From Nodularia sp. LEGE 06071 (GTDB lineage Bacteria; Cyanobacteriota; Cyanobacteriia; Cyanobacteriales; Nostocaceae), in assembly GCF_015207755.1 (NCBI RefSeq), contig NZ_JADEWH010000001.1, positions 620,001-684,000 on the forward strand: DNA of 64,000 bases, read 5' to 3'. The stretch's first letter is position 1. Each line of letters starts with the position of its first letter. A program made the position numbers and the translations under genes. Below are positions 1,121-32,175 of the stretch, in pieces. The notes beneath the pieces were generated by a model, which was given only the letters and a program-made list of their open reading frames with translations, made no database searches and had not been told where the DNA came from.

Positions 1121-2833
1121 TTAATAATGACTTCCCGTTTTTCTTTGATGGACTGCTGTCACACCATCTTTATTTAATACTTTGCCATGATCTACCGTGG
1201 CATAAACTAGCCAATGGTCTGCCGATTCCAACCGACCTTTTACGGAACATTCCAAATATGCTAAAGCATCAGTGAGGATGGGCGAACCACTTTCGCTGTC
1301 CTGGGTAGCAACATCACCAAATCGGTCTTGTGCTGGGCCAAAAGGTTTGAGGAAGTGTTTCATCAAGCCGAGATGCTTGCCTTCTGGGAGAATATTCAGG
1401 ACAAATTTATTTCCTGAGTGCATCAGCGTTTCTAAAGCCCGGTCTTTAGCTACAGCTATGGTTAAACCAGGAGGATTAAAGCTGGCTTGAGACACCCAAG
1501 AAGCTAACATGGCGCTGGATATATCCCCTTCTTTGGCTGTGACGACGCAAAGAGAACCCACGATGCGCCCAACTGCTTGTTCGACATTTGTGGCTGGTTG
1601 GCTGGGAACACGCACTTTTTTGGCTTTTTTCAGGGCTTGGGCAAAGTCGGTTCCGGCTTCTTCACACAATTGTAAGGTGACATCATCGGGTTTGAATTTG
1701 ACGCGAATGGCATCGAAACCGAATCTGTAGCCAGCGTCTTTGAGTTTGTTTTCAATTAAATCAACAGCTTCACCACTCCAGCCAAAGGAACCAAAAACAC
1801 CAGCAAGTTTATTGTTTGTCGCGGTGGAGAGGACAATTCCTAATGCTGTTTGGACTGGTGTGGGTGCGTGACCGCCCAGGGTAGGTGAACCGATGACGAA
1901 ACCAGCAGATTTTTCCACAGCAGCGCGGATTTCTTCGGGTTCTGTAAATTCACAGTTAATTGATTCCACTGCTACGCCAGCTTTAGTAATACCACGCGCG
2001 ATCGCCTGTGCTAATGTAGCTGTATTTCCATAAGCTGAAGCATAAATCAATGCTACTGTCAAGTCAGCCGAGGCTTGCTGTTGAATCCATTGCCGATAAG
2101 CTTTAGTTAGTTCGATTAAGCCATAACGGACTATGGGGCCATGTCCAGTTGCGTACATTCTGGTAGGTAAATCAGCCAGTTTATCTAATGCTGTTTCTAC
2201 TTGACGCGCGTGGGGAGCCATCAGACAATCAAAATAATAGCGTCGGTCTTCGTTGATTGTTTCCCAGCCTTCATCAAATACCTGATCACCACAAATATGC
2301 GCCCCAAATAGTTTATCTGAGTAGAGAATTTCTGTTTGTGGGTCATAGGTGCAAAGCTGGTCTGCATAGCGGGGGTTAGGGGTAGGAATGAATTGTAAAT
2401 CATGTCCTTTACCTAAATTCAGGGTTTCTTCCCCCCGCATGACGATAATTGGTAAATCCTCATTTTCTAAAGCACCGCGTAAATTTTTAGCCCCAGGATT
2501 AGAACAGACAAAGGTAATCTGCGGTGCTAGTTCTAATAAAGCTTTGATAGTGGCGGCGCGGTTGGGATTAATATGACCCAGAATGACATAATCAATGGTG
2601 GTGACATCCATCCGTTGCTGCAATGCTTCCAGGTGAATGTCGGTGAATGTTTCTCCTGGAGGGTCAATGAGAGCGATTTTATCACCCTGAATTAGATAAG
2701 AATTAGCAGTTGTACCTTTAGCTAGAGCATATTCAATTTCAAATCTCAGCCTTGACCAACTGCGCGATCGCATTATTGTTGTATCTGTCCCAATGGGCAG
2801 AACTTGAACATCACGGGGTTTATTTTCTGACAT
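1121..2833 (-). CDS. flv1: Diflavin flavodiiron protein Flv1 (non-canonical diiron site)
   Basis: This 570-residue protein has the three-part cyanobacterial flavodiiron layout: a metallo-beta-lactamase-like domain (about 1-255), a flavodoxin-like FMN domain beginning near TVALIYASAYGN, and a C-terminal NAD(P)H:flavin reductase-like domain beginning near AVGRIVGSLCVVTAKEGD. With its partner Flv3 it reduces O2 to water at the acceptor side of photosystem I (Mehler-like reaction). The usual H-x-E-x-D-H iron ligands are replaced here by GHINPNR at residues 86-92, which is the known signature of the Flv1/Flv2 subgroup and separates it from Flv3. It lies downstream of flv3 and a DUF559 gene on the same strand. 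Whether it is the vegetative (A) or heterocyst (B) paralogue cannot be decided here. Confidence 0.93.
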   Translation of the reverse strand: MSENKPRDVQVLPIGTDTTIMRSRSWSRLRFEIEYALAKGTTANSYLIQGDKIALIDPPGETFTDIHLEALQQRMDVTTIDYVILGHINPNRAATIKALLELAPQITFVCSNPGAKNLRGALENEDLPIIVMRGEETLNLGKGHDLQFIPTPNPRYADQLCTYDPQTEILYSDKLFGAHICGDQVFDEGWETINEDRRYYFDCLMAPHARQVETALDKLADLPTRMYATGHGPIVRYGLIELTKAYRQWIQQQASADLTVALIYASAYGNTATLAQAIARGITKAGVAVESINCEFTEPEEIRAAVEKSAGFVIGSPTLGGHAPTPVQTALGIVLSTATNNKLAGVFGSFGWSGEAVDLIENKLKDAGYRFGFDAIRVKFKPDDVTLQLCEEAGTDFAQALKKAKKVRVPSQPATNVEQAVGRIVGSLCVVTAKEGDISSAMLASWVSQASFNPPGLTIAVAKDRALETLMHSGNKFVLNILPEGKHLGLMKHFLKPFGPAQDRFGDVATQDSESGSPILTDALAYLECSVKGRLESADHWLVYATVDHGKVLNKDGVTAVHQRKTGSHY

Positions 2834-6281: not shown

Positions 6282-6458
6282 CCTTAATAAGGCTACCGTG
6301 TACACACATCCTGATCCAAAAAGGGTTTCCAGGCCTAAAAACAGAATTTCACTGTAAATCCGGTTCCCCTCCTCGCTTGCGGGGAGGGGCTAGGGGTGGG
6401 GTGTTATGACACAAAAAAGGATTTCAAGACTTGTGTGTACACCGTAGCCTTAATAAGG
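6282..6458. mobile_element. MITE-like element, copy 1, with 11-bp target duplication
   Basis: A 155-bp element occupies 6293-6447. Its ends are inverted copies of CTACSGTGTACACACA (15 of 16 match) and it is bounded by an exact 11-bp direct repeat CCTTAATAAGG at 6282-6292 and 6448-6458. The target is a palindromic host repeat (CTCCTTAATAAGGAG) that would be restored on excision. Inside lies a copy of the G/C-rich dispersed repeat (6366-6402). It has no coding capacity. A related element with the same ends but different contents is at 31745-31889. Ends and duplications are read directly; mobilisation by a transposase in trans is inferred. Confidence 0.82.
6366..6402. repeat. Dispersed G/C-rich repeat, copy 4, nested in the MITE-like element
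   Basis: It is a near-identical match to the copy at 2884-2921 (CTCCTCGCTTGCGGGGAG core). It is the internal cargo of the element at 6293-6447. Confidence 0.85.
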
Positions 6459-31364: not shown

Positions 31365-31733
31365 CGTGCGACTAAATTGCAGTAACTAAATTGTTTTGAC
31401 CCCCTAATTCCGAGAATCTTTGGGAGTACTACCTCTTTAAACCAGCATACCTTAAGTGCAAACAATTCTCAGTTACATAAATAAAAAATATCAAAACTTT
31501 GTCATAATTTCCGGTTATGAATCTGAAATTCGGGAGGAGGGAGTAGGCTTCGCCGAAGGTCTGAACGGCTATAGCCAGTGTGGAAAGTGTCAAAACACAA
31601 GGTAGATTCTTCCCCAATACCCCCAAATGGATGAAAAATACCTTTTTTGCTCATGCAGAACAGAAAAGTTTGGGGATTTGAAGTTTAAAGGTTTTGATGA
31701 AGCGGATCTCAGTTTTGCAAATTCCGGCTCCCT

Positions 31734-31900
31734 CTCCTTAGTAACTACGGTGTACACACAAGTCTTATCAAGTTGCCTAACAGCGTTTCGATCCCCCCTA
31801 ACCCCCCTTGAGAAGGGGGGAATTGGAATTAAAGTCCCCCTTTTTAAGGGGGATTTAGGGGGATCAGATCACTTGTGTGTACACGATAGCTCCTTAGTAA
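31734..31900. mobile_element. MITE-like element, copy 2, with 11-bp target duplication
   Basis: A 145-bp element at 31745-31889 has ends related to copy 1 (CTACGGTGTACACACAAGT on the left; CTATCGTGTACACACAAGT on the other strand at the right). It is bounded by an exact 11-bp repeat CTCCTTAGTAA at 31734-31744 and 31890-31900, within a host palindrome (CTCCTTAGTAAGGAG). Its inner part is a different palindromic repeat (GATCCCCCCTAACCCCC ... AAGGGGGATTTAGGGGGATC). It has no coding capacity. Confidence 0.82.
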
Positions 31901-32175
31901 GGAGAGGGTTGGGGTGAGGTTTTATCAAGCTCACACAAAAAGTCAGATGCTGGCATTTTGATGTTTATAAAATAGTTTCAAATTATTCTCATTAGGAAAA
32001 ATAAAACATTACATAATGGGGCTGAAATTATCTTACTTAAGAGGAATAATTGCTATTTTAGAGACAGAAAAATTTAATTTATTAGATATTAATTAAGCTT
32101 GCTTTTATTTTTTAAATGTTAAGATGTAAAAGATAAGCAGTTAAATGTCACTACTGTTAAAAACCGAGGAGAACC
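31901..32175 (+). promoter_or_regulatory. AT-rich upstream region of dps with strong ribosome site
   Basis: The sequence is very AT-rich from about 31960 and ends with CCGAGGAGAACC directly before the dps ATG, a GAGGAGA ribosome site at ideal spacing. A promoter is expected here; no regulator box could be assigned with confidence. Confidence 0.4.

What the first reader, a model, noticed from the sequence alone, without database searches (positions are those of the whole stretch)
31734..31900. Second element of the same family with unrelated cargo (copy 2)
It shares the inverted ends (CTACGGTGTACACACAAGT) and the exact 11-bp direct repeat (CTCCTTAGTAA), and it sits in the same kind of palindromic host repeat, but the interior is a different palindrome (AGGGGGATC family). 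Two copies with the same ends, the same duplication length and the same target, yet different contents, suggest that a pair of ends can mobilise whatever lies between.
Basis: partly seen in the sequence, partly recalled or inferred. Interest (0 to 1): 0.7.

Follow-up and report, generated by a model that had tools for sequence, protein, structure and literature searches.

The report
Miniature transposons with interchangeable interiors
The feature is a 145-base mobile element without genes of its own, whose two ends match a Tn5-like insertion sequence of cyanobacteria; elements with these ends carry several different interiors and sit at the tips of hairpin repeats.

Summary
Window 31745-31889 is a 145-bp unit with inverted ends (right end 2 mismatches), flanked by exact 11-bp repeats inside a split hairpin. 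I read it as a MITE of a 1487-bp IS4-family, Tn5-like insertion sequence, found intact in other Nostocales with the same 19-bp ends, 9-11 bp duplications and hairpin targets. Of 71 units extracted from this genome (not all), 42 have exact 9-12 bp duplications. The copy 1 site is an intact hairpin with one 11-mer in three of four relatives. No transposase for these ends was found in this genome, only a fragment.

Cargo swapping is partly right. Copy 2's palindrome is a diverged homologue of the commonest interior (57 of 71). But among 115 units from all fetched loci, 8 of 10 interior clusters include exact duplications, copy 2's palindrome also lies between other inverted repeats, and at copy 2's own locus two relatives carry other interiors. 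The commonest palindrome was never seen without these ends. That the ends move "whatever lies between" fits ends-only recognition, but only interiors under 0.6 kb, mostly palindromes, were seen, and movement was not tested.

The parts
31730..31744 (+). left part of the split host hairpin, ending with the 11-bp target duplication CTCCTTAGTAA (31734-31744)
31745..31763 (+). left terminal inverted repeat CTACGGTGTACACACAAGT
   Evidence: same 19 bases at the ends of the 1487-bp IS
31745..31889 (+). copy 2: 145-bp non-autonomous element (MITE), interior class B
31790..31865 (+). interior palindrome GATCCCCC...GGGGGATC, about 76 bp, also found in other elements with different ends in relatives and once in this genome (L304)
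31871..31889 (-). right terminal inverted repeat, 2 mismatches to the left one
31890..31908 (+). second copy of the 11-bp duplication (31890-31900) and right part of the host hairpin
6293..6447 (+). copy 1: 155-bp element of the same family, interior class C; the 40 bp inside its left end resemble the 3' end of the IS transposase gene (z 4.4)
6282..6292 (+). left target duplication of copy 1, CCTTAATAAGG
   Evidence: the 11-mer is single, in an intact hairpin, in G003, G002 and (as CCTTACTAAGG) G001
6448..6458 (+). right target duplication of copy 1, CCTTAATAAGG

Best explanation
[quoted passage not shown] It was (inferred) moved in trans by an IS4-family, IS50/Tn5-like DDE transposase that recognises the 19-bp ends, cuts the unit out and inserts it with a staggered cut of about 11 bp near the apex of a hairpin repeat, which splits the hairpin and duplicates 9-12 bp. 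If only the ends matter, the interior is free to change. Interiors are mostly palindromes; some units still keep about 40 bp resembling the transposase gene next to one end (shown), others only the end. The likely history (inferred) is deletion of an IS down to its ends, entry of a palindrome into the remnant or recombination between elements, then amplification of each new combination.
For: The IS: 1487 bp in G041, CTACGGTGTACACACAAGT at both ends, 480-codon transposase frame, duplication CCTTAGCAAGG in a hairpin; further copies in Calothrix, Nostoc and Scytonema. Transposase: NCBIfam NF033590 at 389.5 bits (cut-off 160), Tn5 transposase in PDB at 2.2e-37, Y(2)R(3)E(6)K readable as YTWRWRIEQLFAILK. 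The frame ends ...LLVCTP* inside the end repeat. Own genome: 111 exact 14-mer ends, reversed control 0; 71 units, 42 with exact duplication of 9 bp or more against mean 3.75, maximum 9, in 500 shuffles of right flanks. Pre-insertion sites: copy 1 locus is an intact hairpin with one 11-mer in G003, G002 and G001; copy 2 locus in G002 reads CCCTCTCCTTACTAACCAGAGGG without element. Target: 31 of the 42 sites lie within 6 nt of a hairpin centre, against 88 of 4000 random window positions and 4 of 84 sites slid by 30 nt. IS-like sequence inside the end: 14 of 230 subterminal stretches with z above 4, from class C, G031 and G070 units.
Against: No transposase for these ends was found in this genome: 0 matches of the protein at E 0.001; one 56-position fragment under the family cut-off with no ends nearby. 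Class A and B units, copy 2 included, show no IS sequence beyond the ends (z 3.0 at most). 16 of 71 units have no recognisable duplication, and both class D units are among these. Of 24 distinct IS copies 11 have no exact duplication, and 7 of the 13 that have one fail the strict hairpin criterion. Movement was not tested.
Confidence: 0.87

Rival explanations
1. There is no cargo exchange: the units carry one old palindrome family that drifted by mutation.
For: Copy 2's palindrome (B) and the main class (A) align far above chance: score 60 against a maximum of 23 in 500 shuffles. A and B share the modal length 145. Each of the 40 listed places of the A palindrome in this genome lies beside at least one end of the family (40 of 87 candidates were scored; I compared coordinates and fetched three places), so A was not seen apart from the ends.
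Against: Class C and several interiors of other genera show no similarity to A/B at E 1e-5 over 40 bp, and have duplications. The B palindrome is found between other inverted repeats. It lies in opposite orientation relative to the short and long arms in A and B (my reading).
Confidence: 0.12
2. The palindromes have a mobility of their own and enter MITEs, so the palindrome moves between end pairs, and the ends do not pick up cargo.
For: The B palindrome has recurrent limits in relatives (q 491-566, window 31790-31865) and lies in units with other ends. Matches in plasmids of several cyanobacteria cover only the interior of copy 2 (no record covers 80% of it).
Against: No duplication or transposase belonging to the palindrome itself was identified. 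The duplications seen lie outside the family's ends, so whole units moved after they formed. This may be an earlier step and not a full alternative.
Confidence: 0.35
3. REP/REPIN-type palindromes spread by a RAYT-like single-strand transposase.
For: High copy number of palindromic units.
Against: Paired inverted ends, 9-12 bp duplications and an IS with DDE transposase and the same ends. That RAYTs leave no such duplication is recalled.
Confidence: 0.02
4. The hairpin preference reflects survival of insertions in harmless repeats, not targeting.
For: The sites are mostly copies of a few dispersed repeats.
Against: Where the criterion is met, insertions sit at -2.5 to +2 nt from the hairpin centre, 23 of 31 at -2, 0 or +2; sites slid by 30 nt rarely meet it (31 of 42 against 4 of 84). 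Some IS copies in other genera do the same: 6 of 13 with exact duplication meet the strict criterion (L144/L194 and L156/L195 have the same flanks and were counted once each).
Confidence: 0.1

Closest known systems
ISSysp3 (IS4 family, Picosynechococcus sp. PCC 7002 plasmid pAQ7) and its cyanobacterial relatives
   Same: Transposase 64.8% identical to that of the G041 IS over 98%; ends CTACTGTGTACACACAAGT and 10-bp duplication CCCTCTAAAT.
   Different: Autonomous 1485-bp IS; its site did not meet the strict hairpin criterion.
IS4 family, subgroup IS50 (Tn5)
   Same: End pattern CW------Y---CA-A--W-, size range and YREK motif of PMC2266710 Table 1 (passages); Tn5 transposase is the best match among solved structures.
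   Different: Duplication 9-11 bp in IS copies and 9-12 in the units, against 8-9 in that table; hairpin apex targets.
IS231-MIC231 mobile insertion cassettes (IS4 family, Bacillus cereus group)
   Same: IS4-family elements described as modular, with passenger DNA (PMC2266710 passages and reference titles).
   Different: Those carry genes; here short palindromes or minisatellites. The MIC231 papers themselves were not read.
ISRm22 and other ISs that insert into REP palindromes (PMC1525189, abstract and passages)
   Same: An IS4-family IS whose nine copies in S. meliloti 1021 lie in palindromic repeats.
   Different: 6-bp duplications; no MITEs with changed interiors in what I saw.
BrickBuilt MITE of Porphyromonas gingivalis (PMC4596501, outline and abstract)
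   Same: A minisatellite between MITE ends, as in L109.
   Different: Other host; ends not compared.
Mosaic elements made by Tn3-derived miniature elements, TIMEs (PMC4133298, search listing only)
   Same: By its title, miniature elements generate mosaic non-autonomous transposons.
   Different: Tn3 family.
MITEs of Anabaena sp. 90 (PMC3542288, passages) and Nezha (title in a reference list)
   Same: MITEs of Nostocales or cyanobacteria; Anabaena 90 has 147 of 77-541 bp.
   Different: The Anabaena 90 authors saw no similarity between their MITE ends and the ISs of that genome; sequences were not compared here.

Membership tests
MITE | short multi-copy unit with terminal inverted repeats, too small for a transposase | tested here: met
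   145 bp, 71 units extracted in this genome
MITE | target duplication | tested here: met
   copy 2 exact 11 bp; 42 of 71 units exact 9-12 bp
MITE | moved in trans by a transposase | not testable with these tools
   needs an experiment
MITE derived from an IS with the same ends | ends identical to those of an autonomous IS in some genome | tested here: met
   same 19-bp ends as the 1487-bp IS; IS and MITE coexist in G041 (L166)
Type I MITE in the sense of PMC3542288 (partner IS in the same genome) | ends matching an IS of this genome | tested here: not met
   no such IS found; so not filed as type I. The one-contig relative G002 has 29 ends and no family match either
IS4 family (partner IS) | YREK motif, single ORF, duplication of about 10 bp (PMC2266710) | tested here: met
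IS50 subgroup (partner IS) | ends CW------Y---CA-A--W- | tested here: met
   CTACGGTGTACACACAAGT read against Table 1 of PMC2266710
IS50 subgroup (partner IS) | duplication 8-9 bp | tested here: not met
   9-11, all but one 10-11; so called IS50-like, not filed in the subgroup
Mobile insertion cassette (MIC) | IS ends around passenger genes without transposase | tested here: not met
   107 bp between the ends of copy 2, mostly a palindrome
REPIN/REP | no target duplication, RAYT partner (recalled) | tested here: not met
   duplications present; RAYT not searched for

The most novel reading that the evidence does not exclude
Cyanobacterial palindromes and MITE ends form a two-way modular system. 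One set of IS50-like ends picks up many palindromes, one palindrome is shared by several unrelated end pairs, and hairpins are both the landing sites and the cargo, so that insertion and exchange keep making new combinations, also at one and the same locus in sister species.
Probability: 0.33. Interest if true: 0.7.

Novelty: new variant of a known kind. Interest (0 to 1): 0.5.

Why it matters
It links abundant hairpin repeats of filamentous cyanobacteria to a definite, Tn5-like transposase that can be tested at the bench. It offers a case for how MITE families renew themselves by changing interiors while keeping ends. It also predicts insertion sites: apices of CTCCTTARTAAGGAG- and CCTCGCTTGCGGGGAGG-type hairpins.

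Tried and rejected
Searching papers for the end as letters found nothing (0 papers); IS names (ISSysp3 and others) gave 9 papers, none with ISSysp3. PF01609 in this genome found 3 places; none has ends of this family, but one (L139) ends with CTATCCATTACCCACA like another IS of G004. The 2840-bp span in L054 was rejected as one element: its outer ends have no matching duplication, it encloses ordinary open frames, and a 378-bp unit with its own 9-bp duplication lies at one side. An RNA role was rejected: the Rfam match MIR5565, on both strands, is far under its cut-off. Whether G004's different interior at the copy 2 locus arose by exchange or by separate insertion is unresolved: its two flanks do not match. 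In G003 the left end lies in another register of the same hairpin, which speaks for a separate insertion, but no right end was seen in the printed stretch. Wolk et al. 2010 on Anabaena PCC 7120 is not held.

Limits of the counts: one search listed 100 of 111 places; four further units (L300, L301, L302, L305), all with class A-type palindromes, and one-ended copies such as L072 are not in the 71. Units outside the genus come mainly from loci that I picked by paired spacing (18 regions), so class frequencies there mean nothing. Single linkage merges A and B. The z-values rest on 60 shuffles each.

Full report
What is there. Window 31745-31889 is a 145-bp unit with inverted ends, flanked by exact 11-bp copies of CTCCTTAGTAA. 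The flanks are the halves of one hairpin. In the 5.58-Mb genome (54 contigs) the 14-mer GTGTACACACAAGT occurs 111 times and its reversed control never. From the fetched loci and the window I extracted 71 distinct units of 100-420 bp with both ends (up to 3 mismatches each). Exact duplications of 9-12 bp flank 42 of them (28 of 11 bp), 12 more have one of 9-11 bp with one mismatch, 1 has an exact 7-mer and 16 have none. With right flanks shuffled among units the mean is 3.75 and the maximum 9 in 500 runs. The 71 are not all: at least four more were met later.

Interiors in this genome. All-against-all comparison gives four classes: A with 57 units, C with 7 (copy 1 among them), B with 5 (copy 2 among them) and D with 2; exact duplications are in 33 of 57, 5 of 7, 4 of 5 and 0 of 2. 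A and B are not unrelated: their palindromes align with score 60 against at most 23 in 500 shuffles.

Partner IS. In relatives the same ends bound longer elements. In G006 and G007 the sequence inside the end reads as the C-terminus of a transposase. A search with these 41 residues hit 12 of 60 genomes of the family. All 12 are among the 48 of 60 that have the 14-mer, which leaves 36 with ends and no detected transposase; the short query finds close relatives only, so 36 is an upper bound. In G041 five copies of a 1487-bp IS were found, four with exact 11-bp duplications, of which one (L162) is not in a hairpin by the strict criterion. The transposase is IS4 family (NF033590, 389.5 bits) and related to Tn5 transposase. 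Named hosts of near relatives (83-86% identity) include Calothrix membranacea FACHB-236, two Nostoc strains and Scytonema tolypothrichoides; the ISfinder-named ISSysp3 lies at 64.8%. In the window's genus, G002 (one contig) has 29 ends and no family match, G001 (one contig) 31 ends and one weak 55-position match, and the window's own genome one 56-position fragment; G003 and G004 have IS4_3 genes of another lineage (31-34% identity to the G041 protein). So in this genus the ends seem to have outlived their transposase, or it comes and goes.

Targets. The reconstructed 41-nt empty sites of 54 units (duplications exact or with one mismatch) fold with median -18.05 kcal/mol, against a mean of -5.3 (sd 3.1) for 2000 random window stretches and -4.9 (sd 3.8) for 1500 stretches outside long ORFs. 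Of the 42 sites with exact duplication, 31 have a hairpin centre within 6 nt of the centre of the duplication, 23 of these at -2, 0 or +2; random positions 88 of 4000; sites slid by 30 nt 4 of 84. For the IS, 13 of 24 distinct copies have exact duplications and 6 of those 13 meet this strict criterion. A second IS4-family element of G004 (31% identical transposase, ends CTATCCATTACCC) also splits the CCCCGCAAGCGAGG hairpin, with a 10-bp duplication that I read. REP targeting by an IS4-family IS is known for ISRm22 (PMC1525189, abstract and passages).

Empty and refilled sites. At the copy 1 locus G003 and G001 align on both sides with an overlap of exactly 11 bp, and G003, G002 and G001 read as an intact hairpin with one 11-mer; in G004 element and hairpin are both missing, which says nothing. 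At the copy 2 locus G002 has the 11-mer once and no element, in an imperfect hairpin; G004 has a class C unit; G003 has a left end with yet another interior; in G001 the site is not there. So one small hairpin has been occupied by different interiors in different species, by exchange or by separate insertion: the register in G003 suggests a separate insertion, and G004's flanks do not match each other.

Interchangeable parts. Over all loci fetched up to then, 115 units fall into 10 clusters of interiors (E 1e-5, 40 bp, single linkage); 8 clusters contain units with exact duplications of 9 bp or more, 58 of 115 units in all. They include a CATTGCGAG...CAATGACA repeat, a TTCCCAGGCAGAGCCTGGGAA repeat, a TTCTTCGTGTCCTTTGCG repeat and a minisatellite. 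Class D has no exact duplication and is no evidence. In the other direction, the B palindrome was looked at in ten places whose alignment covered the palindrome alone (L304, L306-L314): none has a pair of ends of this family (L307 has a single 4-mismatch match, likely chance), and in L304, L306, L308, L313 and L314 it is framed by another pair of inverted repeats, of the form GAGGATGTTTGAAAAGT or, in L304, AGGTTGTTTTAAAAGT. L310 has a related pair, L307 and L309 none reported, L311 and L312 were not run. An eleventh place, L303 in this genome, keeps a degraded right end of this family. For the A palindrome the result is opposite: all 40 listed places (40 of 87 candidates scored) lie beside at least one end of the family by coordinates, and three fetched to check have both. 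So two-way modularity is shown for B only. Class C units, G031 units and one G070 unit keep sequence like the transposase 3' end next to one terminal repeat (14 of 230 subterminal stretches with z above 4), which ties some foreign interiors to an IS remnant; A and B show none.

Mechanism. Shown: shared ends, duplications, empty sites, hairpin apices as targets, several interiors, IS-like remnants in some. Inferred: mobilisation in trans, ends-only recognition as in Tn5 (recalled), and the way interiors were acquired. I give 0.87 to the MITE and IS50-like explanation and leave the origin of the interiors open between entry of palindromes into deleted ISs, exchange between elements, and mobility of palindromes on their own.

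Novelty. MITEs, modular IS4-family cassettes (IS231-MIC231) and REP targeting by ISs are known. I did not find this end family, its hairpin targets or its interchange of palindromes described, but my searches cover only an open-licence library, and ISfinder and subscription papers on Nostoc and Anabaena MITEs were not read. New variant of a known kind.

Noticed in passing
L109:1501-2089 and L135 about 1290-1518 (both G007), L119 from 1501: Ends of this family around or next to minisatellite arrays with units of about 21 bp; L109 has both ends and an A-rich 9-bp duplication.
   Followed up: partly
L304:130-278 (own genome), L306:118-287, L308:126-296, L313:102-266, L314:139-301: Another small element family, with GAGGATGTTTGAAAAGT-like ends, that contains the same palindrome as copy 2.
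   Followed up: partly
L333 about 1324-2944 (G004:C39); L139 near 2036 (own genome C11): Another IS4-family IS with ends CTATCCATTACCC that also sits in the CCCCGCAAGCGAGG hairpin; two copies 98.8% alike in G004, and a transposase-domain remnant with such an end in this genome.
   Followed up: partly
L143:1498-1516: The transposase stop codon and last codons (..LLVCTP*) lie within the terminal inverted repeat.
   Followed up: yes
L335 (own genome C1:355570-355737): A 127-aa open frame with a weak match to the N-terminal part of the IS4 family model, without these ends nearby.
   Followed up: partly
G001:C1:960796-961615: Sequence right of the copy 1 locus, target hairpin included, is repeated several times in tandem in G001.
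   Followed up: no
L020:1496-1678 (own genome C2): Two left ends in a row: 38 bp that look like the IS 5' end (AGTAAACTACTAGGGG), then a class A unit; a hint that the IS once lived in this genome.
   Followed up: partly
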